64,000 nucleotides of DNA. Source: Polaribacter butkevichii (lineage in GTDB: Bacteria; Bacteroidota; Bacteroidia; Flavobacteriales; Flavobacteriaceae). A model generated the notes under the pieces. That model saw only the letters and a program-made list of their open reading frames with translations, ran no database searches and was not told where the DNA came from. The stretch is taken from contig NZ_CP150661.1 of NCBI RefSeq assembly GCF_038024105.1, positions 1,755,001 to 1,819,000 on the forward strand. Reading direction: 5' to 3'. Positions 14,087 through 63,853 of this stretch are shown in pieces; the first letter of the stretch is position 1; the number at the start of each line of letters is the position of its first letter. Both the position numbers and the translations under genes were made by a program.

Positions 14087-14102
14087 TTAAAATTGACTAT
14101 CT

Positions 14103-14177
14103 GCGTTAGGGATTGAAACGGCATCCTTTTTTTCTTTTTCGGAAAAAAGATATAGTGGAAAGCCTATTAAAACGCCC
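14103..14177. repeat. Interspersed repeat family C, directly after trpE stop
   Basis: It reads GCGTTAGGGATTGAAACGG, then CATCC and a T run, then AAAAAAGATATAGTGGAAAGCC, ending AACGCCC. The second copy (59363-59440) is in opposite orientation. Its last base is shared with the trpE stop codon. Confidence 0.8.
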
Positions 14178-15568
14178 TAAATATTTTCTGCTAAAATTAA
14201 CGCTTTCTTTAAAGCTGCTAACTTATTATTTACTTCTTGTAATTCTTTTTCTTCGTCGGAATGAATAACGATTCCTGCGCCTGCTTGCGAATATAAAACA
14301 TTGTTTTTACTAACAAAAGAACGAATGGCAATGGCCAAATTTACAGAACCATCTAAACCGATAATTCCGACTGCTCCTCCGTAAAAACCACGGGTTTGAT
14401 TTTCATATTTATCGATCAACTCCATTGCTTTGTACTTTGGCGCGCCACTTAAGGTTCCGGCAGGAAAAGTGTCTCCAACAATTTCTATTGGGTTTCCTTT
14501 AATCTTACCTCTAACCGTAGAAACCAAGTGAATTACGTGGCTAAAATACTGCACTTCTTTAAATACCTCAACAGTAACTTTATCGGCATGTTTGCTTAAA
14601 TCGTTACGGGCTAAATCTACCAACATTACGTGTTCTGCCGTTTCCTTTTTATCTTCGGATAATTTTTTACCCAACTTAATGTCTTCTGCCATATCGCCCG
14701 TTCTTCTAAACGTACCTGCAATAGGATTGATAGTGGCTTTACCTGCAGAAATTTTAATTTGTGCTTCTGGTGAAGATCCCATTAATTTGAATGAACCGTA
14801 ATCGAAATAAAATAAATATGGCGACGGGTTTATAGAACGTAATGCTCTATAAACATTGAATTCGTCTCCTTTAAATTTTTGTTGAAATTGGCGTGACAAA
14901 ACCAATTGAAAAACATCACCTCTTTTACAGTGTGATTTTGCTTTTCTAACATAATCGATAAATTCTTCTCCTGTTGTATTTGAAGTTTCTTCGCCTACAA
15001 TTTCGAATTTTTGTGTATTAAAAGATTGTGCATCTATAATAGTTTGAACTTCTTTAATACGAGATGCTGTACCTTCTTCTACATTTTCTATCAGCGTCAT
15101 TTCATCATTAAAATGATTGATGGCAATAATAAAACGGTAAAAACTGTATTGCATTTCTGGAATTGCAGAGGGTGCTTTTTTGTTTTTAAATTGAATATTC
15201 TCAAAATACTGAACAGAATCAAAGGTTGTATACCCGTACAATCCGTTGAACGATTTTAATTCGGCTGGACACTCTAAATCTATAGCATTGGTAAACTTAT
15301 CAAACAATTCATAAAAGTTTTTGTTGATAGGTTGCTGATCTAGTTGTGTTCCTTTATGAGAAACAGAAAACTGATAATCGTCCACTTTCATCGTTAAAAT
15401 GGGCTCTACCGCAATAAATGAAAAACTTTCTTCTTTACTATGATAATCTGAACTTTCTAACAACAAAGTGTTAGCGTATTTATCTCTAAAACGCAAATAC
15501 AAACCAACCGGTGTAACGGTATCTGCAATCTTTGTTTTGTGAATTGTTTTAAACTGTAATTTTTTCAT
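14177..15568 (-). CDS. trpE: Anthranilate synthase component I
   Basis: TrpE makes anthranilate from chorismate and ammonia. The 463-residue protein has the chorismate-binding C-terminal domain with SPEAQIKI, PIAGTFRRT, EHVMLVDLARNDL, TFPAGTLSGAPK and GGAVGIIGLDG. The N-terminal LLESSDYH is the LLES motif that binds tryptophan for feedback inhibition, so the enzyme is likely Trp-sensitive. It is the first structural gene of the operon, 156 bases downstream of the leader terminator. Confidence 0.97.
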   Translation of the reverse strand: MKKLQFKTIHKTKIADTVTPVGLYLRFRDKYANTLLLESSDYHSKEESFSFIAVEPILTMKVDDYQFSVSHKGTQLDQQPINKNFYELFDKFTNAIDLECPAELKSFNGLYGYTTFDSVQYFENIQFKNKKAPSAIPEMQYSFYRFIIAINHFNDEMTLIENVEEGTASRIKEVQTIIDAQSFNTQKFEIVGEETSNTTGEEFIDYVRKAKSHCKRGDVFQLVLSRQFQQKFKGDEFNVYRALRSINPSPYLFYFDYGSFKLMGSSPEAQIKISAGKATINPIAGTFRRTGDMAEDIKLGKKLSEDKKETAEHVMLVDLARNDLSKHADKVTVEVFKEVQYFSHVIHLVSTVRGKIKGNPIEIVGDTFPAGTLSGAPKYKAMELIDKYENQTRGFYGGAVGIIGLDGSVNLAIAIRSFVSKNNVLYSQAGAGIVIHSDEEKELQEVNNKLAALKKALILAENI

Positions 15569-15584
15569 GTTACTTTTTGTTTGG

Positions 15585-15685
15585 TCTAGCGCAGTCGAGA
15601 CCTTTTTAGAACCTCTCGAGAACTGCGTTCGATACTTTCAACCAAATATATTTTGGTTTTAGTAATGCTCGAGGGAACATTTGTC
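15585..15685. repeat. Palindromic repeat family B, between attenuator and trpE
   Basis: CTAGCGCAGTCGAGACC, TCTCGAGAACTGCGTTCGA and GCTCGAGGGAACATT form a degenerate, extended family B element. It lies in the untranslated region between the leader terminator and the trpE start. Confidence 0.65.
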
Positions 15686-15724
15686 TATTCTTTTTTACTT
15701 TGGATGATTTAAAAAATCATCATA

Positions 15725-15757
15725 AAAAAAAGGCTTATCGTGAGATAAGCCTTTTTT
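15725..15757 (-). terminator. trp leader attenuator terminator
   Basis: On the minus strand GGCTTATC pairs with GATAAGCC around a TCAC loop, extended by A/T pairs and followed by seven T. It lies downstream of the leader peptide and upstream of trpE, so it can only act as a premature terminator. Confidence 0.88.
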
Positions 15758-15809
15758 AATTTATGTTATATATACATATAGGATTCTTCTCACTTATGAA
15801 TTAAGAGAG
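15725..15809 (-). promoter_or_regulatory. trp attenuator: alternative 1:2, 2:3 and 3:4 hairpins
   Basis: Segment 1 (15802-15809, CTCTCTTA, directly after the Trp codons) pairs with segment 2 (15789-15796, TAAGTGAG) with one mismatch. Segment 2 can instead pair through GTGAGA (15788-15793) with TCTCAC (15740-15745) in the terminator's 5' arm. Segment 3 otherwise pairs with segment 4 to make the terminator. A ribosome stalled on the Trp codons would cover segment 1 and favour readthrough. The pairings are read by eye, without energy calculation. Confidence 0.8.
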
Positions 15810-15844
15810 TTCCACCACCAAGTATTTTTTGTATTGTTTTTCAT
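15794..15844 (-). CDS. trpL: trp operon leader peptide
   Basis: A 16-codon frame encodes MKNNTKNTWWWNSLNS, with three consecutive Trp codons (TGG x3, 15812-15820). The stop codon lies inside attenuator segment 2. Placement between a promoter and a terminator in front of trpE matches classic ribosome-mediated trp attenuation. The -7 promoter box ends only 7 bases before the ATG, so the message may be almost leaderless. Confidence 0.88.
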   Translation of the reverse strand: MKNNTKNTWWWNSLNS

Positions 15845-15851
15845 TCTGAAA

Positions 15852-15859
15852 CAAAAATA
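15852..15859 (-). promoter_or_regulatory. trp promoter -7 box
   Basis: TATTTTTG on the minus strand fits the Bacteroidetes TAnnTTTG box. An ATTG lies about 20 bases upstream as a -33 element. Confidence 0.65.
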
Positions 15860-15932
15860 AGATAGATTTTTAAAATAGGCAATGTTTAGATAGATTTTAT
15901 TTAAAATAAAATCATTATTAAACTGAAAAAGA

Positions 15933-15964
15933 ATTGTTTAGTTTGATTGAAAATGGTAACTTTA
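15933..15964 (+). promoter_or_regulatory. Candidate promoter of the 3-hydroxyacyl-CoA dehydrogenase gene
   Basis: ATTG, 20 bases, TAACTTTA. This is one base off the TAnnTTTG box and 62 bases before the chosen start. Confidence 0.45.
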
Positions 15965-16026
15965 TGTACATCTAAACAATATATAATGCATCAATAATAT
16001 TGATACACTATGTTAGCAAAAATAAA

Positions 16027-16932
16027 ATGAAATATAAAAATATAACTGTTGCTGGAAGTGGTGTTTTAGGTTATCAAATTGCTTTTCAAATTGCTTTTCA
16101 AGGTTTTAACGTAACTATTTACGATATTAATGATGAAGTTTTAGAAAAAGCAAAATCAAAATTTAAAATAATCGCTAAGGCTTTTAAATCAGATTTAAAC
16201 GCAACTCAAGAACAATTAGATATAACCTTTAAAAACTTAACTTATACTTCAAATTTAACAGAATCCGTAAAAGATGCTGACTTATTGATTGAGGCTATTC
16301 CAGAAAATATAGCAATAAAAATAAGTTTTTATGAGCGCTTAGCTAAAGTTGCTCCCAAAAAAACAATTTTTGCTACAAATTCATCTACACTTCTACCAAG
16401 TCAACTTGCTGATTCCACAGGAAGACCAAAGCAGTTTTTAGCTTTACATTTTGCTAATAATATTTGGAAACATAACACGGCAGAAATAATGGGACACCCT
16501 ACAACAGACCCTAAAATTTTTAAAGACTTAATTATATTTGCTAAAGCAATAGGAATGTTACCATTACCTCTACACAAAGAGCAACCTGGATATATATTAA
16601 ACTCATTATTAGTACCTTTATTAAGCGCTAGCTTAGACTTATTAGTTAAAGAAGTGTCTGACCCTTATACAATTGATAAAACATGGATGAAAGCTACTGG
16701 AGCTCCAATTGGTCCTTTTGCAATATTAGATACTGTTGGTATAAACACGGTTTATAATATTAACTTATCATCTGCAGAAGAAACACAAGAACCACTTGCC
16801 TTTAAAACGGTAAAATACTTGAAAGAAAATTTTATTGATAAAAATAAATTAGGTATTTCTACAGGTGAAGGTTTTTACAAGTATCCAAACCCTAGATTCT
16901 TAGATTCTGATTTCTTAAAAATAAAACCATAA
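16027..16932 (+). CDS. 3-hydroxyacyl-CoA dehydrogenase, NAD-binding type
   Basis: The protein has the Rossmann GSGVLGYQIA at the N-terminus, then the HAD features EAIPENIAIKISFYERL, FATNSSTLLPSQLA and ALHFANNIW (catalytic His). A C-terminal domain has PGYILNSLLVPLL and GPFAILDTVG. It oxidises 3-hydroxyacyl-CoA with NAD in beta-oxidation or a related pathway. I use the ATG at 16027 (301 residues), which puts the Rossmann strand at the start; an upstream TTG would add nine unlikely residues. A small IAFQIAFQ tandem duplication follows the GxGxxG loop. It stands alone. Confidence 0.88.
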   Translation: MKYKNITVAGSGVLGYQIAFQIAFQGFNVTIYDINDEVLEKAKSKFKIIAKAFKSDLNATQEQLDITFKNLTYTSNLTESVKDADLLIEAIPENIAIKISFYERLAKVAPKKTIFATNSSTLLPSQLADSTGRPKQFLALHFANNIWKHNTAEIMGHPTTDPKIFKDLIIFAKAIGMLPLPLHKEQPGYILNSLLVPLLSASLDLLVKEVSDPYTIDKTWMKATGAPIGPFAILDTVGINTVYNINLSSAEETQEPLAFKTVKYLKENFIDKNKLGISTGEGFYKYPNPRFLDSDFLKIKP

Positions 16933-17159
16933 CAACTTAACTCTACTTATTAGCAGCTTAAATACTTAATCATAAATTTTGTCTTTAGTAGCTTTTAGGC
17001 TTTTTTTGAAGTGTGTTTTAATAAAGTCTGCCAAATATTTTTGATTTGACTTTACAAAAAAATTAAGTATTCATTTAACCACAGGCCAAACTTAGCCTTA
17101 CTACATTTTTATTAGTTCTCCTTTTTAAATCATAGAAAACATCATATTTAACCAAACAA

Positions 17160-17186
17160 AAAAAATCTCGCTTTCGCGAGATTTTA
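17160..17186 (-). terminator. Terminator of the gat operon
   Basis: On the minus strand AAAATCTCGC / GCGAGATTTT around a 4-base loop is followed by a long T run, 25 bases past the gatB::aspS stop. Confidence 0.88.
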
Positions 17187-17210
17187 ATATTTTCAAGAAT
17201 TCTTAAAAGA

Positions 17211-20200
17211 CTATTTCCTTATAATTCTAACATTCATTTCTTCTACCTTTTTATCAGATAAAATTGAAGGTGCATTAAACAATAAATCTTCTGATGATCC
17301 TGTTTTAGGGAAAGCCATTACTTCTCTAATAGAAGCTTTCTTTTCTAAAATCATCATTAATCTATCTACTCCCCAAGCAATTCCTCCGTGTGGTGGCGCT
17401 CCATACTGAAAAGCTTTGTACATTGTACCCACACTTTTCATCATTTCTTCTTTATCATAACCCATATTTTTATAGGTTGCTTCTAAAATTTCTGCCTTAT
17501 GTGCACGCACAGAACCTCCACCAATCTCATAACCGTTTAAGATTAAATCGTATTGTTGCGCTATAATAGTTCCTATTTCTTCTCCTTCTCCAGTCATGTG
17601 CTTTTCTAAGTCATAGATTGCTGGCATAGAAAAAGGGTTGTGTGTAAATGTCCATCTTCCTTCATCTGTTTTTTCAAACATTGGAAAATCTACCACCCAC
17701 GCTGGTCTTAATTCTTTAGGATTTATCAATTTAAAAATGCGTCCCATTTCTTGACGAACAGCATCTAATGCTTTGTTTGCTGTTGCATAATCTGCTGCTG
17801 AGAAAAATACAATATCACCAACTTTAGCATCTGTAGCTTTTATAATATTTGCTGCAATTTCTTCTCCTAAAAACTTAATAATTGGCGACTGTAAATCATT
17901 TTCATTTACAATAATATATGCCAAACCACCTAATCCATTTTGTTGTGCAATTGCAGTTAAGTTTTCAATTTGCCCTTTAGAAGCTCTTTTATTTCCTTGT
18001 TCAGCTGCAGAAACTTTAATACATTTTACAATTCCGCCTTCTTCAATTGGTTTGCTAAAAACTTGGAATGTGGTATCTTTTACAATATCCGTAATGTCTT
18101 GCATTTGCAATCCGTAACGTAAATCGGGTCTATCACAACCATATTTATCCATTGCGTTTTTATACGTAATTACTTCAAAAGGATGTAAAACCCATTTTTT
18201 ACCATAGATTTTCTTCACAATCTCATTAAACATTTTGGTATTTAAATCGATAATTTGCTGCATACTTGCGTATGCCATTTCTATATCTAATTGTGTAAAC
18301 TCTGGTTGTCTGTCTCCACGAGAATCTTCATCTCTAAAGCAACGTGCTATTTGAAAATATTTTTCAAAACCACCCACCATTAACATTTGTTTAAATTGTT
18401 GTGGCGCTTGCGGAAGCGTGTAAAAAGAACCCGCTTGTTTTCTTGTAGGCACAATAAATTCTCTTGCTCCTTCGTCTGTACCAGCCGTTAAAATAGGCGT
18501 TTCAATTTCTAAAAACTCTTCTTCGTCTAAGATATCACGCATTAGCTTGATTACTCTATGACGGTTCACAATAGCTTTACGAACCTCATCATTTCTATGA
18601 TCTAAAAACTTATATTGAAAACGAACATTCTCGTTCGATTTCATCGCTCTTTTTATTTCAAAAGGAAGCGTTTTAGATAAGTTTAAAATATCTAAAGCAG
18701 ACGTTTCTAATTCTAATTTACCAGTTCTTAAACCTGCGTTATAATCATCTTCATTTCTTTTAACTACAACTCCGGTAACAGAAATTACAGATTCTGATTT
18801 TAACTTTACAAGCTCATCTAAGTTAGGAAATGTTTCTCTACTTAAACGTACTTGAAAAACTTGATTGCTAGAATCGCGTAAATCAATAAAAATTAATTCA
18901 CCATGATCTCTAACACTAGAAACCCAACCAGATAAAGTAACCTCATCATTAATTGAGTCTTCCGATAATTGAGAAATTTTATGAGTTCTATATTCCTCTT
19001 TTATAATAATCGGAACTTGAGGTAACGTTTCTTCTTCTATTTTTGCTTTTGGCTGATCGCTAGTTGCTTTTGACTCATCAGCTACAGCTGCACTCGTAGT
19101 CGTTATAACATCCGCAGAACAAGCATTTAATATTTCTTGACGAATTACTTTCCCTGAAGCTCCTTTACCAATAATACCAATAACTTTACCAACAAGAATA
19201 CCTGCTTTACCTTGGTTTCCTGCTTTAATATCGTTTGCAGTTGCTTCATTTTCTGAAACTACTTTTGCAACGGCATCTTTAATTTTATCTTCAGAAATTG
19301 TATTGTCTTCAAAGTACTTTTTATAATCGAAAGTTCTATCTTTTAAATACGATGTAATTCCGTTTTGCACTAAAACTGACGTTATTTTATCGTCTTTAAA
19401 TAATTGAAAAATCTCAATTAATTGATCAACACTATGAATATTCTCATATTCATCTGCACCAATATTATTTACCAATGTTTTGGCAACGAAAGAAGCATCA
19501 TTTATTTTATTATTGATAGCAACAAAAACTTCTGAACGCAAAGAATCTGCAGTAAAAAACTTAGCATCTTGTGGTAAAACACCCCCATTTATCAAAATAG
19601 ATTCTACTGCAAAAGGCAATGAACTGATATCTACATCGATACTTTCTACTACTTTTTTAATGTTGACAAAAGGTAAATCTGGCTCAGAAATAAAACGATA
19701 ATCTGCCTCAAACTCCTTTTTACGCATGGTTTTAGTCTGCTTTAAATCTGCATCCCATAAAACCGTTGTTTGGTCTGGTCTAAATGCCTTATTTTCTACG
19801 TAATAACTTAATTGCTTTTCAATTTCTTCCTTTAAAGCATCTACCATAAACTTAAAAGAATTTAAGTTTTTGATTTCTGTTCTTGGGTTTAAATCATACG
19901 TGTGTTTTTTACGAAGCGATACAGAAACATCCGATTTAAACTCCCCTTTTTCTAAGTTAGCTTCAGATATTTTTAAATTCTGAACAATTCTTTGAATATA
20001 CTGTGCATACGTAGATGCATCTTCTATATGACGAATACAAGGATCTGTTACAATTTCTATTAACGGAACTCCTGCTTTGTTAAAATCTACTAAAGAAATT
20101 TTCTTTTCGTGCATTAATTTTGCAGCATCTTCCTCTATGTGAACTTGCGTTAAGCTCACTGTAAATTGCGAACCATCATTTCTATAACAAGAAACTTGTC

Positions 20201-20546
20201 CATCTGGTATTACAGGATTATGAAACTGTGTAATCTGAATGTTCTTTGGATTATCTGGGTATTCATAATGTTTACGATCCCAAGAAATAACTTCATTAGA
20301 AAAAGTAGATTTTACTGCTTTTCCAAAATAAATAGCTTTTGTAATTGCCTCTTTATTTATAGAAGGTAAAACCCCCATTTGCCCTGTACAAACTGAACAG
20401 ATATTTTGGTTTGGTTGTTCTATTTCTTGATTTGCACAAGAGCAGAATAACTTTGTTTTTGTATTTAATCGAACGTGAGTTTCAATACCGATTACTAACT
20501 CTAAGTCGTGCTTTTTTATAAGCTCATTTAATTGTTCCAGTTCCAT
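17211..20546 (-). CDS. gatB-aspS: GatB-AspRS fusion: amidotransferase subunit B fused to aspartyl-tRNA synthetase
   Basis: One 1111-residue frame joins two complete enzymes. Residues 1-475 are GatB: VIGIETHVRL, zinc cysteines CSC and CSVC, FNKAGVPLIEIV, and the tRNA-binding tail ending near GASGKVIRQEIL. Residues about 476-513 are an Ala/Thr/Glu/Lys linker. Residues about 514-1111 are bacterial-size AspRS: OB fold (GWVSSVRDHGELIFIDLRD), motif 2 FRDEDSRGDRQPEFTQLDIE, GAD insert, and motif 3 GGIAWGVDRL. His548 (RDHG) occupies the position where discriminating E. coli AspRS has Leu30 and non-discriminating P. aeruginosa AspRS has His31. The ATG overlaps the gatA stop (TAATG). Inference: Asp-tRNA(Asn) made by one half is passed to the other. 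Confidence 0.95.
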   Translation of the reverse strand: MELEQLNELIKKHDLELVIGIETHVRLNTKTKLFCSCANQEIEQPNQNICSVCTGQMGVLPSINKEAITKAIYFGKAVKSTFSNEVISWDRKHYEYPDNPKNIQITQFHNPVIPDGQVSCYRNDGSQFTVSLTQVHIEEDAAKLMHEKKISLVDFNKAGVPLIEIVTDPCIRHIEDASTYAQYIQRIVQNLKISEANLEKGEFKSDVSVSLRKKHTYDLNPRTEIKNLNSFKFMVDALKEEIEKQLSYYVENKAFRPDQTTVLWDADLKQTKTMRKKEFEADYRFISEPDLPFVNIKKVVESIDVDISSLPFAVESILINGGVLPQDAKFFTADSLRSEVFVAINNKINDASFVAKTLVNNIGADEYENIHSVDQLIEIFQLFKDDKITSVLVQNGITSYLKDRTFDYKKYFEDNTISEDKIKDAVAKVVSENEATANDIKAGNQGKAGILVGKVIGIIGKGASGKVIRQEILNACSADVITTTSAAVADESKATSDQPKAKIEEETLPQVPIIIKEEYRTHKISQLSEDSINDEVTLSGWVSSVRDHGELIFIDLRDSSNQVFQVRLSRETFPNLDELVKLKSESVISVTGVVVKRNEDDYNAGLRTGKLELETSALDILNLSKTLPFEIKRAMKSNENVRFQYKFLDHRNDEVRKAIVNRHRVIKLMRDILDEEEFLEIETPILTAGTDEGAREFIVPTRKQAGSFYTLPQAPQQFKQMLMVGGFEKYFQIARCFRDEDSRGDRQPEFTQLDIEMAYASMQQIIDLNTKMFNEIVKKIYGKKWVLHPFEVITYKNAMDKYGCDRPDLRYGLQMQDITDIVKDTTFQVFSKPIEEGGIVKCIKVSAAEQGNKRASKGQIENLTAIAQQNGLGGLAYIIVNENDLQSPIIKFLGEEIAANIIKATDAKVGDIVFFSAADYATANKALDAVRQEMGRIFKLINPKELRPAWVVDFPMFEKTDEGRWTFTHNPFSMPAIYDLEKHMTGEGEEIGTIIAQQYDLILNGYEIGGGSVRAHKAEILEATYKNMGYDKEEMMKSVGTMYKAFQYGAPPHGGIAWGVDRLMMILEKKASIREVMAFPKTGSSEDLLFNAPSILSDKKVEEMNVRIIRK

Positions 20547-21946
20547 TATATCGTATCTTTTAAGAAGTTAGCAAACTTCAAAACAAGTTCGTCATTATTT
20601 TTTGCTGCCGTAATTTGTAATCCTGTTTCTGTTCCTTGTGGCACGGTTAACGTTGGCAATTGCCCTAAACTAAAACCAACCGTATAGGCATCCGACAAAT
20701 ACATTGCTAAAGGATCTTTTAAACTATCGCCAATTTTTGGTGGCGAATTTGGTGTTACTGGTGATAAAATAATAGCAACTTCTTTAAAATCTTTTTCAAA
20801 ATTAGCTATAATTTGATCTCTTACATTTAATCCTTTTAAGTAAATTTCATCAGAAAAACCTTGAGATAATACTTGGTTCCCACCAACAATTCTACGTTTA
20901 GATTCTTCCGAGAAATTTTCTAAACGTGTAATAGAATATGTATCTTTTAAAGTATCGCCTTCTATTCTGTTTCCGTAATTGGTACCATCTAATCTAGATA
21001 GATTCGATGCTGTTTCTGCCATTGCTAAAGTATAGTAGGTAGAAACTAAGGTGTCAGACTCAAAGAAATCTAATTCTTTTACTTCAATTCCTTTGGCTTT
21101 TATTTTTTCTATGGTTGCTAAAAAATCCGCTTTTACTTTTGCATCAATCGCATCATTTTCGATGAAATTTTTAAAGTATCCAACAGTTTTTATTTCATCA
21201 GCATTTAAAATAGTTGCTTCAGAGATTGCTTCCGATTGATACGTGGTTTGATCTTTAATATCCTTACCACTCATCACATTTAAAACAATTCTAATATCTT
21301 CAATCGATTTTGCAATTGGGCCAACACAATCTGTAGACGATGCGTACGCCATTAATCCGTATCTAGAAATTCTTCCGTACGTTGGTTTTAATCCGTAGAC
21401 ATTATTATAACCTGCCGGTTGACGAACAGAACCTCCTGTATCTCCACCAATTGAAAATACCGTAAAATCTTTGGCTACATTTACTGCAGAACCCCCACTA
21501 GAACCTCCAGAAACTAAATCTGTATTGATTGCGTTTTTAACGGCTCCGAAAATGGTGTTTTCAGAAGAAGAACCGTGTCCAAAAGAATCACAATTTTCTT
21601 TTACTAATGGTATTGCGCCTGCATCAAATAATTTTTGAATGGCAGTTGCCGTGTAAGGCGATTTGTACTTTTTTAATAAATCTGAACTCGCCGTTGTTAA
21701 AGTTCCTTGTACCATGTACACGTCTTTAATTCCGAACGGAATTCCCTCTAACAAACCAATTTCTTGTCCGCTTGCAATTTTAGCATCTACTTTAGCAGCT
21801 AATTCTAGCGCCAAGGTATCTAAAAGTGAATTGACGGTATTGTGTGTGTTCGATTTTAATAAATCTAATCTTTCTTGTACCAGTTTTGTACACGAAATTT
21901 CTTTGTTCACCAATTGTTGGTGAATTTTATGTATTTGCGATTCCAT
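20546..21946 (-). CDS. gatA: Asp/Glu-tRNA amidotransferase subunit A
   Basis: GatA is the amidase subunit that releases ammonia from glutamine for transamidation of mischarged tRNA. The 466-residue protein shows the amidase signature: Lys in LEGIPFGIKDVY and the SSSENTIFGAVKNAIN segment. The glycine/serine loop GGSSGGSAVNVAKDFTVFSIGGDTGGSVRQPA holds the Ser-cisSer-Lys triad partners. Length is near standard. It starts 2 bases after the gatC stop and overlaps gatB::aspS by one base, implying coupled translation. Confidence 0.96.
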   Translation of the reverse strand: MESQIHKIHQQLVNKEISCTKLVQERLDLLKSNTHNTVNSLLDTLALELAAKVDAKIASGQEIGLLEGIPFGIKDVYMVQGTLTTASSDLLKKYKSPYTATAIQKLFDAGAIPLVKENCDSFGHGSSSENTIFGAVKNAINTDLVSGGSSGGSAVNVAKDFTVFSIGGDTGGSVRQPAGYNNVYGLKPTYGRISRYGLMAYASSTDCVGPIAKSIEDIRIVLNVMSGKDIKDQTTYQSEAISEATILNADEIKTVGYFKNFIENDAIDAKVKADFLATIEKIKAKGIEVKELDFFESDTLVSTYYTLAMAETASNLSRLDGTNYGNRIEGDTLKDTYSITRLENFSEESKRRIVGGNQVLSQGFSDEIYLKGLNVRDQIIANFEKDFKEVAIILSPVTPNSPPKIGDSLKDPLAMYLSDAYTVGFSLGQLPTLTVPQGTETGLQITAAKNNDELVLKFANFLKDTI

Positions 21947-21948
21947 AA

Positions 21949-22215
21949 TTATTCTTCTATCACTTTAGAAACTACTAAAAAACCATTCTTTTCTTTCGGA
22001 AAGTTTTCAATAATTATTTGTTTTTCTGCCTGCGGACTATCAATAACAATATCTTCTCTTAAATCATCTAAAGTTACAGCATTGTTATGATTGGTATTCA
22101 CGTTATTATCTGATGTATTTGCATTTTTAATTACCTCAAACAATTGATTCACCGATTCCGATGGCTCTGCTCCTTTAATACTAGACAAAATGTCTACCGT
22201 CATTATTTTGCTCAT
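21949..22215 (-). CDS. gatC: Amidotransferase subunit C, diverged
   Basis: The 88-residue product is recognised mainly by its C-terminal half. LDDLREDIVIDSPQAEKQIIIENFPKEKNGFLVVSKVIEE matches the GatC pattern of LREDxxxxS...NAP...GFFxVPKVIE, which wraps around GatA. The N-terminal half (about residues 1-45) lacks the usual helical signature and contains an Asn-rich stretch (NTSDNNVNTNHNN). Position as first gene before gatA supports GatC. The function is known from the family; the divergence is seen here. Confidence 0.85.
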   Translation of the reverse strand: MSKIMTVDILSSIKGAEPSESVNQLFEVIKNANTSDNNVNTNHNNAVTLDDLREDIVIDSPQAEKQIIIENFPKEKNGFLVVSKVIEE

Positions 22216-22232
22216 TTCTTTATTTTTTAATT

Positions 22233-22255
22233 AAGATTCTGAAACAAGTTCAGAA
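22233..22255. repeat. Family E hairpin in the gat leader
   Basis: TTCTGAAACAAGTTCAGAA forms a 7-bp inverted repeat between the leader terminator and the gatC start. It is related to the hairpins before trpD and metF. Confidence 0.6.
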
Positions 22256-22261
22256 CATGAA

Positions 22262-22288
22262 AAAAGCCTTCCGATTAGGAAGGCTTTA
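22262..22288 (-). terminator. gat leader attenuator terminator
   Basis: On the minus strand AAAGCCTTCC pairs with GGAAGGCTTT around TAATC, followed by a T run. It sits 50 bases before gatC, downstream of the leader peptide, so it would stop transcription before the first gat gene. Confidence 0.88.
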
Positions 22289-22356
22289 TGTATATATCTA
22301 TAAACAACAACCTCCCTACCCTAACAATTAGGATTATTGAAATTACGATTGTTATT
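22277..22356 (-). promoter_or_regulatory. Asn-responsive attenuator of the gat operon (predicted)
   Basis: Three mutually exclusive pairings are visible. Segment 1 (22347-22356, AATAACAATC, inside the Asn codon run) can pair over 10 bp with GGTTGTTGTT (22304-22313). Segment 2 (22310-22319, TAGGGAGGTT, sharing GGTT with that strand) can pair over 10 bp with AGCCTTCCTA (22277-22286), the 5' arm of the terminator. Otherwise that arm forms the terminator. A ribosome stalled at Asn codons would block segment 1, free segment 2 and allow transcription into gatC. Pairings were found by eye and include G-U pairs. Confidence 0.82.
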
Positions 22357-22368
22357 ATTATTTATCAT
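22321..22368 (-). CDS. Asn-rich leader peptide of the gatCAB-aspS operon
   Basis: A 15-codon frame encodes MINNNNNRNFNNPNC, with nine Asn codons, then TAG. It lies 18 bases downstream of a consensus promoter box and about 35 bases upstream of the leader terminator. By analogy with trp, his and thr leader peptides, the overrepresented residue names the sensed aminoacyl-tRNA, here Asn-tRNA(Asn). That is exactly what the downstream amidotransferase and AspRS would make together. Confidence 0.85.
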   Translation of the reverse strand: MINNNNNRNFNNPNC

Positions 22369-22385
22369 TGTAACGTTATTGACGT

Positions 22386-22415
22386 CAAATATATAGAGAA
22401 AATGTCGTTTACAAT
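22386..22415 (-). promoter_or_regulatory. Promoter of the gat operon
   Basis: ATTG (22412-22415), an 18-base spacer, then TATATTTG (22386-22393) on the minus strand is a full Bacteroidetes consensus. The leader peptide starts 17 bases later. Confidence 0.78.
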
Positions 22416-22589
22416 CTTCTTTTTTAAGATTTTATACAACCTTTACAATATTTCTAATATATCCTTGTTTATTTATTGATATAACAAAATATTAAAGTTT
22501 ATTTACAAGAAATCTACTAATTAAATAGTAGGTTCCTTATAAATACAACGGCAAAATTGGGGGACTTCACTATTTATAATAAAAAAAAC

Positions 22590-24353
22590 TTACTTTCTTA
22601 AAGGAATTGCAATATTAGGATAATCTGTAATTAAACCATCTACCCCCATATTTAACAAGTTAATCATATCTTCTTTCTTATTTACTGTCCAAGGAATAAC
22701 TCTCATATTATTTTTCTGAATATTAGCAACCTCCTCTTTATTTAACAACACAAAATATGGACTATAAATTGCTGGCACAAAACTTAACATCTGCATGTTT
22801 GTTTTAAAATCATTCTGATACGTTAAAAATGCCAACGTAAATTCTGGATACGTTTTATGAATATATTCTAAAACCCTAGGATCAAAACTTTGAATAACGA
22901 TTCTTTCTACAGGTAATTTTGCTTTTTTTAATTGCGCTATTACAAGATCTGAAAATTTAGCTACAGTAGGTTGAAATCCATCTTTTTCATCCGTAGGCGT
23001 ACTTTTAATTTCTATATTATAAAGAATTTCAGTGTTTTTAGTTTCAGCAAAAGCAATTACTTCAGACAACAAGGGCTTGTAAGCAGCAACTTTTTCTTGC
23101 TCAGGGAACTTAGGATTCCCTAATGAACCAACATCATATTTCTTTATTTTCTGATACTTATTTTTATACATATTAAAAGCAGCAGCATCTTTTTTTGTAA
23201 TACGATTTCCTTTGGCATCTAACGTAATTTCATCATTCAACCAAGGCTCATGAGAAACCACTACTTTGTTGTCTTTACTAATAACCACATCTAACTCTAT
23301 GGTATTTACACCTAAATTTAATGCTTTTTCAAAAGCTTGCATTGTATTTTCTGGTGATAAACCTCTTGCACCTCTATGCCCTTGCAATTCAAAATCATAT
23401 TGCTGCTTTTTCTCTAAAATAGTTGCATCAATAAAAGCTACAGTTTCATTGTATACACTCTCCCAATCATTCGATCTTAAATCACACGCAATTACATGAT
23501 TTCCGGCTTTCGGAAAAGCTACTTTCTTTTTTTTATCAACAGAAGTACCTATACCCTCATACATTTTTAGAATTGCATCCACAGAAACTACCTGATCTTG
23601 TTCTTCTTCATTCTTATAATAATACCCTACAAAAACAGGAATCTTAACTTTAGAGAATGTTTGCGGAGTCATGTTGCTGATTAACATTTTTATTAAAGCT
23701 TCATACCCATTAACATGATAAGAAGTAGACCAATATTTAGCTTCTTCTTCAGGTCTTTTTTGCTTGATAATTTCACCGTGATTCATTTTTATAAATCCGG
23801 CTTTTCCTTCTGGAGTTACAATGGCTGCAAATGCAGGATTTTTAAGTCCGATAAACGGAGAATACATTACCAATCCTAAAATAGAAGCATCTTCTGATGC
23901 TAATTTTAAACTTAAAGTTCCACCTGTTGATGTACTTACTAAAATAACTTTCTTACCAATCTTTTTTCCTATTTCTAAAGCTTCTTTAGCAGAAGCGATA
24001 TAATTTTCTGGTGTTAAATTTATAAAGTTATCATCTCTACCCAAACCATGTTCTTTTAAACGAGATAGGTAAACATTTGCATTGTATTTCTTAGAAAGCA
24101 TGCTCATTACCGGCTCCCCTTCTCTACCACTTGCACCAAAACCATGTAAATACACAAACGCTATAGGAGATTGTTTTTCCTTATAATTTTCTGACCAAAT
24201 AATTCTGGCTTCATTTCCTGATTTCATTCCTTTAACATGAGCTTCTTTATCATTTATACTTTTTTCTAAAGCAGCTAAATTTACAACTTCTTGTCCTTTA
24301 ACAACAGTAATAAACAGTATTAAAAAAAGAAACGATAAAATATTTTTTTTCAT
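22590..24353 (-). CDS. Exported alpha/beta hydrolase fused to glycerophosphodiester phosphodiesterase
   Basis: The start MKKNILSFLFLILF gives a signal peptide; an ATG nine codons upstream would place MVFFLIIIT before it. The N-terminal half (to about residue 318) is an alpha/beta hydrolase with YLHGFGASGREG, the nucleophile elbow VSTSTGGT and a late AGNHV histidine. The C-terminal half (about 319-587) is a GDPD domain with GHRGARGLSPENT, ELDVVISKD, NIEIKS and the closing GLITDYP. GDPD hydrolyses glycerophosphodiesters. The pair could act in sequence on exogenous phospholipids, first deacylating and then cleaving the diester; that is inference. It sits downstream of a TonB receptor, separated by a terminator-like hairpin. 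Confidence 0.88.
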   Translation of the reverse strand: MKKNILSFLFLILFITVVKGQEVVNLAALEKSINDKEAHVKGMKSGNEARIIWSENYKEKQSPIAFVYLHGFGASGREGEPVMSMLSKKYNANVYLSRLKEHGLGRDDNFINLTPENYIASAKEALEIGKKIGKKVILVSTSTGGTLSLKLASEDASILGLVMYSPFIGLKNPAFAAIVTPEGKAGFIKMNHGEIIKQKRPEEEAKYWSTSYHVNGYEALIKMLISNMTPQTFSKVKIPVFVGYYYKNEEEQDQVVSVDAILKMYEGIGTSVDKKKKVAFPKAGNHVIACDLRSNDWESVYNETVAFIDATILEKKQQYDFELQGHRGARGLSPENTMQAFEKALNLGVNTIELDVVISKDNKVVVSHEPWLNDEITLDAKGNRITKKDAAAFNMYKNKYQKIKKYDVGSLGNPKFPEQEKVAAYKPLLSEVIAFAETKNTEILYNIEIKSTPTDEKDGFQPTVAKFSDLVIAQLKKAKLPVERIVIQSFDPRVLEYIHKTYPEFTLAFLTYQNDFKTNMQMLSFVPAIYSPYFVLLNKEEVANIQKNNMRVIPWTVNKKEDMINLLNMGVDGLITDYPNIAIPLRK

Positions 24354-24367
24354 TGTTATTATAATTA

Positions 24368-24414
24368 AAAAAAAGACCACTAAAATTGTAAATACATTTT
24401 TAGCAGTCTTTCTT
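24368..24414 (-). terminator. Hairpin between TonB receptor and hydrolase-GDPD gene
   Basis: On the minus strand AAAGAC-TG-CTAAAA pairs with TTTTAG-TG-GTCTTT across an AT loop and runs into eight T. It may be a partial terminator within a two-gene unit. Confidence 0.65.
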
Positions 24415-24429
24415 ATTTATTTTTAAACC

Positions 24430-26934
24430 TTAAAATTTTATTTTTAATTGCGCTCCAAAGAACCTTGGTGGACCAGCAATAAAAGTCGGAATTCCGAAAG
24501 CACCACCTGTATTACCTGCATCAATAATGTATTGTTTATCCAAAGCATTGTTCATATAAAAACCTAGCTCATACATTTTGTTTATAGTAAGCCCTACTTT
24601 ATAATTTAAAATTCCATAACCCTCTTGTGAAATATTAGGTAAATTGGTTTCTTCAAAAAACACTTTAGACTTATAGGTATATGTTGGTCTAAAAAAGAAA
24701 TCTAAATTTTTGTTGATTTTTGGGTTGATATTAAAACCTAAAGAGAATGAGTGCTTAGGGGTTAATCTAAATGTATTTCCAGCTAAAGCTTGTTCATTTC
24801 CATTAGCATCTTTATCATCAAAAGAAGCATCTATATACCCATAGTTTGCAAAGAAACTGCTACTTTTTGTAAAAGCAAATTGCGTAGCTGCTTCAAAACC
24901 AAATGTACTTGCATTTCCACTATCCTCTGGCGTAGACACAAGTTTTCCATCTTCAAACTTGGTAATTGTTGTTTGAAAATTAGAATAATCATACATATAC
25001 CCATTGATATCAAACTGTAATCTATTATTTAAGAACAACGATTTTGCACCAACCTCATAAGACATTACTGTTTCATCAGATAATATATTTGTTTCCGTTG
25101 CTGTAACACTAATAACGTTAGGTCTTCTTCCTCTTGCAGCTGTTCCGAAAAAAGTAATATTATCATTCACATCATAATTTACTGCGAAACGACCAACTGC
25201 TGATAAAAAATTATCACTTGCTTCTATCTTTTCTCCGTTGGTACTTGCAAATAATACATTTGGATGATTTCCTGTTAAATACCCTAAATTAGAAGGAGTA
25301 GCAGCATCTTCTACTTGATAAGCCGCATTAATGTTTTCCCAAGTAGCTCTTAACCCTAAAGTAATCGATAATTTATCTGTAACATCATAAGAAGCATCCG
25401 CAAAAACATCGCCAGAATAATTTTTACCAAAATTAGTATACGTTTCTTTATTATAAGAACTTAAAGGAGCACCTGCTATTGCACCAAATGTTGCAGAATC
25501 ATTAGGTATGTTTGACAACAAAGTTGGCACACCATTCACAACAAAAGCAGTAGGATTTAAAAGTAACACACCAAAACTTCTCTCATCCAATTCCCATGGT
25601 ACTTCTTGCGAACCATCTTCAAAGAAAAAATTTCCACCAAAGAAACCTCTAAACTTCTCATCTGTATCAAAATTAAATCGAACCTCTTGACTAAATTGTT
25701 TTCCTTTAGCAATTTCTCTAAAATAAAGAGCAGGAGCCGCAGTTCCATCAGCATCAAAAGCTTCATTAGAATCAAATTGTCTATAAGCGGTTGTAGAAGT
25801 AACACCCCAAACATCATTCAGCTCATGTTTTAAAATACCTGTAACACCGTAAACAGTTCTATCTAAACCTAATTCTTCTCCTCTTTCTAAATCAGCAAAA
25901 GTATTTGGGTTTGTATCGCCACCAATTGGCGCATAAGTTCCACTTTTAAAAGAAGTACCAGGAGGCGTATCTTTTTGCCAGTTTGCAATAACATCTAAAG
26001 TTGTATTATCATTTATTAGATATTTAAATGATGTTCTAAAAGCAAGTGTTTCTTTTCCGTTTAAATCTCCACCAGAAACATTTTCGATAAAACCATCTCT
26101 AGAATTGTAAATTGCGGCAGCTCTAAAAAACAATTTATCATCCACCAAAGGTGTATTGTAATACCCTGTTGTTAAAACCTGATTGTAATTACCATAACCA
26201 ACTTTTACAGCTCCAGATGTTTCATTTTTTGCTTTATTTTGTATGATATGCATGGCACCAATTTGTGCTCCTCTACCAAACAAGGTTCCTTGCGGACCTT
26301 TTAAAACCTCTACACGTTCAATATCATACAATTCTACAACAGATCCTCTAGATTTACTAATTGAAACTCCGTCTTGAAAGATAGAAACTCTTGGTTCTAC
26401 TCTAGAATCTCCACTATCACTTGTAATTCCTCTAATAACAATTCCGGGATTATTAACACTTTGAATCTGCACTTGAAAACCAGGTACATATTCTGATAAA
26501 GCATCATACTCAAAAGTCCCTTGATTTTCTATAAAATCTGTTCCGTAAGAAGTAATAGCAATTGGAACATCTTTATTCTTTTGCTCTCTTTTCTGAGATG
26601 TTACCACAACACCTTCTAACATATATGAACTTTCTTTTAAACTAAAGTTTTCAATTGTTTCTGAATTACTAATTAATACTTTCTTTATAATTGTATTATA
26701 TCCTAAATATGAAACTTCAACAACATAAGACGCATTTGCAATTTTCTCTAATATAAATTCTCCATTTTCATTAGAAGTTGCACCTAAAGACAATTTTTTT
26801 ATATAAACATTTGCCCCCACAATAGGTTCTCCTTGCTCTGTGGTTATAGTTCCTTTTAATACGCTAACATCTTGTGCCTTTATACTAATTAAACTAAAGA
26901 GTGTTAAAAAAGTAAATAAAAATTTAAAATGCAT
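24430..26934 (-). CDS. TonB-dependent outer membrane receptor with carboxypeptidase-like N-terminal domain
   Basis: The 834-residue protein has a signal peptide (ending SIKAQ). A CarboxypepD_reg-like domain (about 22-110, GEPIVGANVYIKKLSLGATSNENGEF) is followed by a plug (about 115-225, with VEVLKGPQGTLFGRGA) and a 22-strand barrel ending in an aromatic KIKF. The plug and barrel resemble plain iron/vitamin-type TonB receptors rather than SusC. No SusD follows; instead there is the hydrolase-GDPD gene, hinting at lipid or phosphodiester uptake. The ligand is not readable. Confidence 0.9.
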   Translation of the reverse strand: MHFKFLFTFLTLFSLISIKAQDVSVLKGTITTEQGEPIVGANVYIKKLSLGATSNENGEFILEKIANASYVVEVSYLGYNTIIKKVLISNSETIENFSLKESSYMLEGVVVTSQKREQKNKDVPIAITSYGTDFIENQGTFEYDALSEYVPGFQVQIQSVNNPGIVIRGITSDSGDSRVEPRVSIFQDGVSISKSRGSVVELYDIERVEVLKGPQGTLFGRGAQIGAMHIIQNKAKNETSGAVKVGYGNYNQVLTTGYYNTPLVDDKLFFRAAAIYNSRDGFIENVSGGDLNGKETLAFRTSFKYLINDNTTLDVIANWQKDTPPGTSFKSGTYAPIGGDTNPNTFADLERGEELGLDRTVYGVTGILKHELNDVWGVTSTTAYRQFDSNEAFDADGTAAPALYFREIAKGKQFSQEVRFNFDTDEKFRGFFGGNFFFEDGSQEVPWELDERSFGVLLLNPTAFVVNGVPTLLSNIPNDSATFGAIAGAPLSSYNKETYTNFGKNYSGDVFADASYDVTDKLSITLGLRATWENINAAYQVEDAATPSNLGYLTGNHPNVLFASTNGEKIEASDNFLSAVGRFAVNYDVNDNITFFGTAARGRRPNVISVTATETNILSDETVMSYEVGAKSLFLNNRLQFDINGYMYDYSNFQTTITKFEDGKLVSTPEDSGNASTFGFEAATQFAFTKSSSFFANYGYIDASFDDKDANGNEQALAGNTFRLTPKHSFSLGFNINPKINKNLDFFFRPTYTYKSKVFFEETNLPNISQEGYGILNYKVGLTINKMYELGFYMNNALDKQYIIDAGNTGGAFGIPTFIAGPPRFFGAQLKIKF

Positions 26935-27451
26935 TTTATTGAGTTTAAAATTAATTAGAATGCAAATTTATCTTTGTGAAGCAAGACTCTTGTTAACTTA
27001 AAATCATACAATAGTTACTTTTTAAATAGTTAGACCCCATTTTTTACAAATAATTCACGAAACAATAACACAAAAAATTAAACATATTAATAGGGTTTGT
27101 TTTTCTCAGAAAAAACCTAAATATGTACAGCTGAATAACACCTACTTAATCATTTTACCGAGGCAGAAATCTTGTTCTAACAAAACGATACTAACTTACT
27201 CTATGGTAATAAATACAATCTAAATAATACGCTATTATTCCATTAAACAAAAAACACCCCCTATTTTACAATATAGAAACAAAAGATTTAAGCCACTTTT
27301 AATCATTCTGATTTTCAAGAAGAAACAAAAAATATTAAAATTAATTTTAAAACCATTTTTAAGCCATTTAAGCCACTTTTAAGAAATCAACAAATGTTGA
27401 TAATTTTTAAACAAAATTGCTAAAAACACTTTAAAAGCACTTTAAAATCCG

Positions 27452-27459
27452 TAAATTTG
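27452..27459 (+). promoter_or_regulatory. gyrB promoter -7 box
   Basis: TAAATTTG, with TTTA 18 bases upstream as a weak -33 element. Transcription would start near 27463. Confidence 0.6.
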
Positions 27460-27460
27460 A

Positions 27461-27501
27461 GATTACTGAAATTTATTTTTTAAAAACGAATTTCAGCAAT
27501 C
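27461..27501 (+). promoter_or_regulatory. Hairpin at the predicted 5' end of gyrB mRNA
   Basis: GATT-A-CTGAAATT (27461-27473) pairs with AATTTCAG-C-AATC (27489-27501) around a T/A-rich loop. It would be the first structure of the transcript and may stabilise or regulate it. Confidence 0.6.
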
Positions 27502-27504
27502 TAA

Positions 27505-29466
<1,962 letters not shown>

Positions 29467-59362: not shown

Positions 59363-59440
59363 GGGCGTTACCACAAGGGTCGCGCTTTACACTATATCTT
59401 TTTTTAAACAAAAAAAGGATGCCGTTTCAATCGCTAACGC
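59363..59440. repeat. Interspersed repeat family C, directly after the 78-aa gene
   Basis: Read on the minus strand it is GCGTTAGCGATTGAAACGG, CATCC, T-run, AAAAAAAGATATAGTGTAAAGCG, ... GGTAACGCCC. This is the same element as 14103-14177. Its first base is the last base of the neighbouring stop codon. Confidence 0.8.
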
Positions 59441-63694: not shown

Positions 63695-63717
63695 TCAGGA
63701 AAGGTAATTTTTTCGCT

Positions 63718-63829: not shown

Positions 63830-63853
63830 GTATCAATAAGTTTATGAACTGAA

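What the first reader, a model, noticed from the sequence alone, without database searches (positions are those of the whole stretch)
22262..22415. Asn-codon leader peptide and attenuator controlling the gatCAB-aspS operon
Seen: consensus promoter, then a 15-codon ORF (MINNNNNRNFNNPNC, nine Asn), then an intrinsic terminator before gatC. Two 10-bp alternative pairings are mutually exclusive with each other and with the terminator: 22347-22356 with 22304-22313, and 22310-22319 with 22277-22286. Known: leader-peptide attenuators carry codons for the amino acid their operon supplies. Inference: the operon senses scarcity of Asn-tRNA(Asn) by ribosome stalling and responds by making the enzymes that synthesise it. 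I know of no described asparagine-sensing ribosome-mediated attenuator on gat genes.
Basis: partly seen in the sequence, partly recalled or inferred. Interest (0 to 1): 0.95.

Follow-up and report, generated by a model that had tools for sequence, protein, structure and literature searches.

The report
Asparagine-sensing switch for asparagine synthesis
In many flavobacteria the genes predicted to make asparagine on its tRNA are preceded by a conserved 14-17-codon reading frame rich in asparagine codons and by a predicted transcription stop signal, an arrangement that would likely let the genes be read only when charged asparagine tRNA runs short; our literature searches turned up no earlier asparagine-sensing switch of this kind.

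Summary
The element is present in 39 of 79 assessable named gat loci; a covariance model finds 29 strong copies in 299 family genomes, all ahead of gatC. Core Asn codons vary mainly AAT/AAC, the stop is UAG in 68 of 68 readable leaders, and the stop-codon hairpin and terminator show compensatory changes. In silico, a ribosome stalled at Asn codons frees the antiterminator in 37-39 of 40 sequences, one at the stop in 0 of 40 (assumed 15-16-nt footprint). The operon is probably a tRNA-dependent asparagine-biosynthesis operon: within the genus it excludes canonical asnB (10 versus 14 genomes, no overlap) and occupies the same trpE-gyrB slot; GlnRS is present, AsnA absent; the fused AspRS has the His of non-discriminating enzymes (recalled). 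Against: no covariation in 2:3, leader absent from 40 of 79 loci, an AsnB-like gene present, nothing measured. A new amino-acid specificity and target for a known mechanism.

The parts
22386..22393 (-). Predicted promoter -7 box TATATTTG (Bacteroidota TAnnTTTG type)
   Evidence: TAnnTTTG found 10-43 nt before the leader ATG in 40 of 40 leaders; consensus type recalled
22321..22368 (-). Leader peptide ORF MINNNNNRNFNNPNC, nine Asn codons, stop UAG
   Evidence: Sequence; 68 readable leaders (of 69) all end in TAG and have 6-10 Asn; core Asn codons vary mainly AAT/AAC
22347..22356 (-). Segment 1: Asn codons 5-7 and first base of codon 8, pairs with 22303-22312
   Evidence: The 14 rows with the CGT codon, the window's among them, form 9-10 of these 10 pairs; the other register, used by AAT rows, is paired in 93.6% of cells over all rows
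22319..22333 (-). Small hairpin holding the last codons and the UAG stop (U-CCUAA / UUAGG-G), inside the 1:2 domain
   Evidence: 100% of cells paired over five pairs; C-G to U-A change on both sides in 3 of 40 rows
22303..22312 (-). Segment 2, part pairing with segment 1 (GGUUGUUGUU)
22309..22318 (-). Segment 2, antiterminator 5' arm, pairs with 22276-22285; overlaps the 1:2 arm by 4 nt
   Evidence: The eight core pairs are formed in 96.9% of cells in 40 sequences, slid controls at most 72.8%, no both-sided changes
22276..22285 (-). Segment 3: 3' arm of antiterminator and 5' arm of terminator
22260..22287 (-). Intrinsic terminator (10-bp stem 22287-22263, loop of 5, T-run to 22260)
   Evidence: 97.3% of cells paired, 3 pairs with both-sided changes
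21949..22215 (-). gatC
   Evidence: TIGR00135 24.9 bits, below its curated cut-off 47.1; identified also by position before gatA
20546..21946 (-). gatA
   Evidence: TIGR00132 430.5 bits, best family, below its cut-off 481.1
17211..20546 (-). gatB::aspS fusion, 1111 aa (GatB residues about 14-473, AspRS about 518-1109)
   Evidence: TIGR00133 336 bits and TIGR00459 647.6 bits, both over cut-off; the ORF runs past gatB in 79 of 80 loci, L011 too short to tell

Best explanation
This is a conserved Asn-codon leader ORF with overlapping antiterminator and terminator pairings, and it is predicted to act as a ribosome-mediated transcription attenuator that senses charged tRNA-Asn and controls a gatC-gatA-gatB::aspS operon that likely makes asparagine on tRNA-Asn. 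SHOWN from sequence: leader ORF, terminator-like hairpin, alternative pairings, their conservation, and the operon's mutual exclusion with canonical asnB in the genomes examined. INFERRED: when Asn-tRNA is plentiful the ribosome reaches the UAG stop and covers segment 2, so the 3:4 terminator forms and transcription ends before gatC. When Asn-tRNA is scarce the ribosome stalls at one of the Asn codons. It then covers segment 1 but leaves segment 2 free to pair with segment 3, and RNA polymerase reads into the operon. INFERRED: the GatB-fused AspRS is non-discriminating and charges tRNA-Asn with Asp, which GatCAB amidates to Asn-tRNA-Asn. The hairpin that contains the UAG stop may serve as the pause that keeps polymerase and ribosome in step.
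For: Leader in 39 of 79 assessable named loci; the model found none in the other 40. 29 of 299 family genomes have a strong model hit (98.9 bits or more, next 55.9), one per genome, all before a gatC-like ORF. 68 of 68 readable leaders have 6-10 Asn and end in UAG; core Asn codons vary mainly AAT/AAC. Helices 1:2, stop hairpin and 3:4: 96.5% of cells paired versus at most 61.2% in slid controls; 5 pairs changed on both sides versus 1.8 (sd 0.8) in shuffles, 0 of 500. 2:3: 96.9% versus at most 72.8%. All 14 Arg-codon (CGT) rows have G at the facing position. Ribosome masking (16 nt): 2:3 favoured in 39 of 40 with the A-site at Asn positions -12 to -4 from the stop, 37 of 40 at the last, 0 of 40 at the stop; holds for masks of 15-18 nt, mostly for 14. 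Operon role: own genus, fused gatB in 10 genomes and two-piece canonical asnB in the other 14, no overlap; canonical asnB in 0 of 48 and 0 of 46 fused-operon genomes, two overlapping sets; no AsnA in the 24 genus genomes; GlnRS over cut-off in 23 of 24; asnB and gat share the trpE-gyrB slot; His at the recalled ND-AspRS position in 79 of 79 readable fused proteins.
Against: No transcript, termination or starvation data. 2:3 has no compensatory changes. Of the 14 both-sided cells, 7 lie in the terminator's loop-closing pair, 3 in the stop hairpin and only 1 in helix 1:2; the count of further pair types is not above shuffles (78 of 500 as high); shuffles do not correct for kinship. Before segment 4 is made, equilibrium folding favours 2:3 even without a ribosome in 37 of 40, so termination without translation is not predicted at that point. 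On the full leader at equilibrium the terminator dominates even with a stalled ribosome (0.84 versus 0.97), so the switch must be kinetic. A shorter assumed footprint (12-13 nt) abolishes the stop-codon effect, and 20 nt spoils the last Asn position. 40 of 79 loci have the operon without the leader. 'Canonical' asnB is defined by its match pattern and length, a proxy; the window's genome has one AsnB-like gene, although it lies in a NeuB/glycosyltransferase cluster. AsnRS also charges tRNA-Asn. Non-discriminating AspRS activity is not shown.
Confidence: 0.86

Rival explanations
1. The leader is a real attenuator, but the operon's main job is charging tRNA-Asn for translation (as in bacteria lacking AsnRS), not making asparagine for the cell.
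For: 42 of 46 fused-operon genomes have asnS, but three that are 99% complete (G265, G313, G322; the fourth, G356, is 76% complete) have none at E<=1e-80, so the pathway probably can supply Asn-tRNA alone.
Against: AsnRS is present in the window's genome and 42 of 46; the operon replaces asnB, a biosynthetic gene, in the same chromosomal slot.
Confidence: 0.12
2. The terminator merely ends transcription from upstream, and the Asn run is an AT-rich accident.
For: A same-strand gene (22590-24380) lies upstream in the window; AAT is a common codon in AT-rich DNA.
Against: In four relatives the nearest checked gene upstream of the leader, about 600 bases away, is divergent: gyrB in L165 and L166, trpE in L167 and L168 (smaller ORFs in between were not checked). 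Asn codons, UAG stop and pairings are conserved; 0 of 46,633 Markov ORFs reach 9 Asn.
Confidence: 0.02
3. The leader works at another level (translation coupling to gatC, or the peptide acts in trans or arrests the ribosome by its own sequence) instead of tRNA sensing by codons.
For: Phe and Pro positions between the Asn codons are almost invariant (40 of 40 and 37 of 40 rows), more than codon counting needs.
Against: Pro changes to Ser together with its RNA partner (C-G to U-A, 3 rows), so RNA pairing explains that constraint; a terminator hairpin stands between leader and gatC in all 40 aligned rows. Sequestering of the gatC start was not examined separately.
Confidence: 0.06
4. A tRNA-binding or metabolite-binding leader (T-box or riboswitch) instead of a translated leader.
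For: Structured leader on an aminoacyl-tRNA pathway operon.
Against: No T-box or riboswitch match here in Rfam 15 at gathering or E<=1; a translated ORF with Asn codon conservation explains the sequence better.
Confidence: 0.02

Closest known systems
Classical ribosome-mediated attenuators of amino-acid operons (trp, his, phe, thr, leu, ilv leaders; Rfam RF01859 Phe_leader, RF00506 Thr_leader)
   Same: Short leader ORF rich in the codon of the operon's amino acid, alternative 1:2, 2:3, 3:4 pairings, intrinsic terminator (scheme recalled)
   Different: Codon is Asn; target is a tRNA-dependent amidation pathway. Rfam models hit below gathering only: Phe_leader 32 versus 55 bits, Thr_leader 23.5 versus 55
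Bacteroid-trp leader RF01692 (present in this window at 15744-15864, minus)
   Same: Same genome and neighbourhood, leader peptide with regulatory codons (MKNNTKNTWWWNSLNS) and terminator-like hairpin
   Different: Trp codons, trp operon; the RF01692 model does not match the gat leader
tRNA-dependent asparagine biosynthesis of Deinococcus/Thermus and Bdellovibrio (PMC4206432: abstract, section 16 and passages seen)
   Same: AsnRS, GlnRS and GatCAB together, no AsnA or canonical AsnB; Asn made on tRNA-Asn by AspRS plus GatCAB
   Different: Here the second AspRS is of bacterial type and fused to GatB; that survey reports a second AspRS within its AsnRS+GlnRS+GatCAB, no-Asn-synthetase set only in Deinococcus-Thermus (archaeal type). 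The word attenuation does not occur in its main text
Leader-peptide attenuators outside Proteobacteria/Actinobacteria (hisS/hisZ of Firmicutes, PMC2965389, passages seen)
   Same: Leader peptide with a run of one codon on an aminoacyl-tRNA gene
   Different: His codons, Firmicutes; no Bacteroid-, gatC or asparag- mentions in that main text

Membership tests
Ribosome-mediated (leader-peptide) transcription attenuator | Short translated leader ORF with a run of codons for the operon's amino acid | tested here: met
   9 of 15 codons Asn; 6-10 Asn in 68 of 68 readable leaders; translation itself, and that Asn is the operon's amino acid, are inferred
Ribosome-mediated (leader-peptide) transcription attenuator | Intrinsic terminator between leader ORF and first gene | tested here: met
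   termination not measured
Ribosome-mediated (leader-peptide) transcription attenuator | Antiterminator pairing mutually exclusive with the terminator and overlapping a 1:2 pairing | tested here: met
   Conserved in 96.9% of cells; no covariation, as expected of an arm with two partners but not proof
Ribosome-mediated (leader-peptide) transcription attenuator | Geometry: stall at regulatory codons frees segment 2, ribosome at stop covers it | tested here: met
   In silico only: 39 or 37 of 40 versus 0 of 40; depends on an assumed mask of about 14-18 nt
Ribosome-mediated (leader-peptide) transcription attenuator | Read-through rises on limitation of the cognate amino acid | not testable with these tools
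   No expression data
Bacteroid-trp leader RF01692 | Score above the family's gathering cut-off | tested here: not met
   Match only at 15744-15864, none at the gat leader
Phe_leader RF01859 / Thr_leader RF00506 | Score above gathering | tested here: not met
   32 versus 55 and 23.5 versus 55 bits
T-box | Rfam T-box match | tested here: not met
   None at gathering or E<=1
tRNA-dependent Asn biosynthesis pathway | GatCAB with GlnRS present, so GatCAB is not needed for Gln | tested here: met
   glnS over cut-off in 23 of 24 genus genomes, the 24th (G004) a contig-end fragment of 405 bits
tRNA-dependent Asn biosynthesis pathway | No AsnA and no canonical AsnB | tested here: met
   AsnA absent in 24 of 24 genus genomes; two-piece canonical asnB in 0 of 46 fused-operon genomes, AsnB-like in 17 of 46 including the window's
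tRNA-dependent Asn biosynthesis pathway | Non-discriminating AspRS | tested here: inconclusive
   His of RDHG, as in the two chains named Asp/Asn ligase whose alignments one search shows, in 79 of 79 readable fused proteins; the chains recalled as E. coli and T. thermophilus have Leu; meaning of the residue recalled; a second recalled position is Asp, not Gly
tRNA-dependent Asn biosynthesis pathway | tRNA-Asn with U1-A72 | not tested
   No tRNA-Asn in the stretches scanned

The most novel reading that the evidence does not exclude
This is the first asparagine-sensing ribosome-mediated attenuator, and the first attenuator on a tRNA-dependent amino-acid biosynthesis pathway: the molecule sensed (Asn-tRNA-Asn) is also the direct product of the controlled enzymes. 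It governs a built-in GatB-AspRS transamidation machine that replaced asparagine synthetase in the same chromosomal slot in Flavobacteriaceae.
Probability: 0.75. Interest if true: 0.8.

Novelty: new variant of a known kind. Interest (0 to 1): 0.74.

Why it matters
Leader-peptide attenuation is textbook biology, but I know of no Asn-responsive case and the searches listed none. Here the sensed molecule would be made on the tRNA by the controlled enzymes, a direct feedback loop without a free amino-acid pool in between. It also offers a regulatory clue that the GatB-AspRS fusion in Flavobacteriaceae is an asparagine-biosynthesis machine that displaced AsnB, which makes a standing annotation ambiguity (why GatCAB in organisms with both GlnRS and AsnRS) testable with one deletion and one reporter.

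Tried and rejected
Rejected: a sigma-70 promoter at the leader; T-box, riboswitch or known Rfam leader; GatCAB needed for Gln. Asn leaders ahead of canonical asnB: in 13 of 14 asnB genomes of the genus no Asn-rich ORF was seen on the asnB strand; in the 14th (G020, L121) a short ORF MIFTFNNNNSNCLFAS lies 81 nt before asnB, without a terminator hairpin that I could see, and that asnB frame holds an internal stop. The Asn-containing ORFs of L110 and L111 are Trp-type leaders on the opposite strand. The 55.9-bit model hit in G200 shows no such leader, and the 54.5-bit hit in G335 is an Ile/Val leader before an ilvD-like ORF. Leader presence is not tied to the AsnB-like gene (12 of 25 leader genomes, 13 of 23 leader-less). 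No Bacteroidota genome other than the window's own had a hit at E<=5e-4 in an even sample of 395, some of the same family. tRNA-Asn identity could not be checked. My regex missed the leader of L164; the model found it.

Counting notes: L053 was dropped from leader counts (67 bases upstream) and L011 from the fusion count (166 bases downstream). One search was given 50 of the 80 loci; 48 were held. The genome sets and 65/70 overlap. The match list was truncated, so the type of AsnB-like genes was settled for the 46 fused genomes only. G210 has a leader but no gatB hit; its locus L138 ends soon after gatC. L154 has no readable in-frame ATG and is left out of the 68. A2 holds the window and 39 loci; the 29 model hits are not in it.

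Full report
OBSERVATION. The minus strand of 22415-22260 reads: a TATATTTG box (22393-22386), an ORF of 15 codons (22368-22321; MINNNNNRNFNNPNC, UAG stop), then GGUAGGGAGGUUGUUGUUU, then a 10-bp hairpin with a T-run (22287-22260), then gatC at 22215. They share four bases, and the second uses the terminator's 5' arm. The ORF is exceptional: of 606 ATG-ORFs of 8-30 codons in the window no other exceeds 5 Asn, and none of 46,633 in 60 Markov copies has 9. The fold is more stable than shuffles only with the terminator (z -3.0 with it, -0.28 without it). The downstream genes are gatC, gatA and a single 1111-aa ORF that joins GatB to AspRS (the gatC and gatA matches are below their curated cut-offs).

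CONSERVATION. A search with GatA gave 80 named loci, nearly all titled as Flavobacteriaceae; the closest to the window are Polaribacter (93% identity over GatA plus GatB-AspRS to L007). In 79 of 80 the gatB ORF is still open after 999 codons, where the fetched DNA ends (L011 too short). 39 of 79 loci with upstream sequence carry the leader; a covariance model found none in the other 40. The leader-less loci printed (L034 and L060 were not) have a different sequence directly before gatC. On a tree of GatA plus GatB-AspRS the leader occurs in both main parts and its presence needs 11 changes, at least 10 by well-supported branches, so it has often been lost or gained.

The model R1 gave 29 strong hits in 299 family genomes, one per genome (98.9-130.9 bits; next best 55.9). 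All 29 lie ahead of a gatC-like ORF; in L132 the nearest ATG gives a longer ORF of 106 codons. In an even sample of 395 phylum genomes only the window's own genome was hit at E<=5e-4.

CODING AND PAIRING EVIDENCE. In the 40-row alignment A2 the Asn codons at the core positions are AAT or AAC, with few replacements; one position is CGT (Arg) in 14 rows and CTT in 2. All 68 readable leaders end in UAG. The 14 rows with the Arg codon form 9-10 pairs of a 1:2 register shifted by one codon, and all 14 have G at the facing position, where AAT/AAC rows have A in 19 and G in 5. Counted on A2, helices 1:2, the stop-codon hairpin and 3:4 are paired in 96.5% of cells against at most 61.2% in slid controls; 5 pairs have changes on both sides (shuffled mean 1.8, sd 0.8; 0 of 500 shuffles as high). 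The number of further pair types is not above shuffles (78 of 500 as high). Of the 14 both-sided cells, 7 lie in the terminator's loop-closing pair and 1 in helix 1:2. The clearest case is the stop-codon hairpin, where C-G becomes U-A in 3 rows although this turns Pro into Ser. The antiterminator is paired in 96.9% of cells (slid controls at most 72.8%), without any both-sided change; an arm that must pair with two partners is not free to covary, so this neither proves nor refutes it.

RIBOSOME GEOMETRY. I folded each leader up to the end of segment 3 with the bases under a ribosome masked. With 16 bases masked from the first base of the P-site codon, 2:3 was favoured in 39 of 40 sequences with the A-site at positions -12 to -4 from the stop, 37 of 40 at the last Asn position (-2), 32 of 40 at the last codon and 0 of 40 at the stop. 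For masks of 15-18 nt the contrast between last Asn and stop holds; at 14 nt the stop still lets 7 of 40 through, at 12-13 nt it no longer blocks, and at 20 nt the last Asn position fails too. So, for the usual footprint (recalled), the Asn run ends about where a stall still frees segment 2. Against a simple thermodynamic picture: without a ribosome 2:3 is favoured in 37 of 40 before segment 4 exists, and in the whole leader at equilibrium the terminator stays at 0.84 even with a stalled ribosome (0.97 otherwise). The switch must be kinetic, as in classical attenuators.

WHAT THE OPERON DOES. The window's genome has AsnRS, GlnRS and a separate canonical AspRS. In the 24 genomes of its genus that were examined, a fused gatB is present in 10, and a canonical asnB (defined by proxy: two-piece match to TIGR01536, ORF about 557 aa) in the other 14; none has both, none neither. 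By chance with fixed totals that split has probability 1 in 1.96 million (hand calculation), not corrected for kinship. No genus genome has AsnA. Of 48 fused-operon genomes reached through named loci, 0 have canonical asnB and 25 an AsnB-like gene. In the family sample 46 of 299 have gatB, all over cut-off and in ORFs of 809-1131 codons; 0 of 46 have canonical asnB, 17 an AsnB-like gene, 42 asnS. These sets overlap. At E<=1e-70, 29 of 46 fused genomes and 22 of 253 others lack any AsnB-type gene. The window genome's own AsnB-like gene sits among NeuB, epimerase, cytidylyltransferase and glycosyltransferase genes, so it probably modifies a glycan (inference). asnB lies between trpE and gyrB in 9 of 11 asnB genomes checked on both sides, and the gat operon lies between trpE and gyrB in 6 of 6 other genomes and in the window: one replaces the other in place. 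Genomes of the order with a stand-alone GatB (about 490 aa) have no glnS over cut-off (9 of 9), the usual Gln role.

The fused AspRS carries RDHG at a place where two chains named Asp/Asn ligase in the PDB also have His (4wj3, 5w25; organisms recalled as P. aeruginosa and M. tuberculosis), and where the chains recalled as E. coli and T. thermophilus have Leu; the genome's canonical AspRS has Lys. The His is present in 79 of 79 readable fused proteins. That this residue marks non-discriminating enzymes is recalled, not taken from a call; the second recalled position is Asp here, which is uninformative.

LITERATURE. PMC4206432 (abstract, section 16 and passages seen) shows that the Bdellovibrio AspRS charges tRNA-Asn and, with GatCAB, gives a tRNA-dependent Asn route beside AsnRS and GlnRS, and lists Bacteroidetes among 18 genera with this set and no Asn synthetase, with a second AspRS only in Deinococcus-Thermus. 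PMC2965389 (passages) says that, before its Firmicutes case, leader-peptide systems were to its authors' knowledge shown only in Proteobacteria and Actinobacteria. In PMC2864571, PMC4833913 and PMC1262725 the stem asparag- does not occur in the main text; PMC9976931 was read in passages on AspRS only. None of the listings of ten full-text searches on attenuators, GatCAB and the fusion shows an Asn attenuator. One likely relevant survey (Lopatovskaya and others) was seen only as a citation, so priority is not proven.

VERDICT. It works like a classical attenuator and meets the defining features that could be tested in silico; the regulatory response is untested. New here are the Asn specificity, the tRNA-dependent biosynthesis target, and the in-place replacement of asnB by a GatB-AspRS fusion.

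Noticed in passing
window 17211-20546 (-): GatB and AspRS are fused in one 1111-aa ORF, likewise in 79 of 80 related loci and 46 of 46 gatB-bearing family genomes: possibly a covalently built transamidation machine. One paper search on it listed nothing.
   Followed up: partly
trpE-gyrB interval, window 14177-29466; L164-L169, L171-L181: asnB and the gat operon occupy the same chromosomal slot in different genomes of the genus.
   Followed up: yes
window 15744-15864 (-): Bacteroid-trp leader RF01692 with peptide MKNNTKNTWWWNSLNS, about 6.5 kb from the Asn leader.
   Followed up: partly
L160 about 2292-2410 (+): Ile/Val-rich leader peptide MKRNLINIIAVVIIVIISQ with a GCCTTCC terminator before an ORF that I recognise as ilvD-like: another attenuator type in the family.
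   Followed up: partly
L128, minus strand, 206 nt before asnS: In the window's genome a short ORF MKEINILYNSNNNINF (6 Asn of 16) lies 206 nt before asnS, without an obvious terminator after it; conservation not checked.
   Followed up: no
L121, 81 nt before asnB (G020): Short ORF MIFTFNNNNSNCLFAS ahead of asnB in 1 of 14 asnB genomes of the genus.
   Followed up: partly
G265, G313, G322: Three 99%-complete genomes with the fused operon have no asnS at E<=1e-80 and no leader hit at E<=0.01: possibly fully dependent on the indirect route.
   Followed up: no
L008 (Polaribacter sp. Hel1_85), before gatC: The leader region is replaced by unrelated sequence with another T-tailed hairpin before gatC; possibly a recent loss.
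   Followed up: no
window 63716-63831 (-); 59374-59445 (-); 14095-14173 (+): SAM riboswitch and two Flavo-1 RNAs.
   Followed up: no
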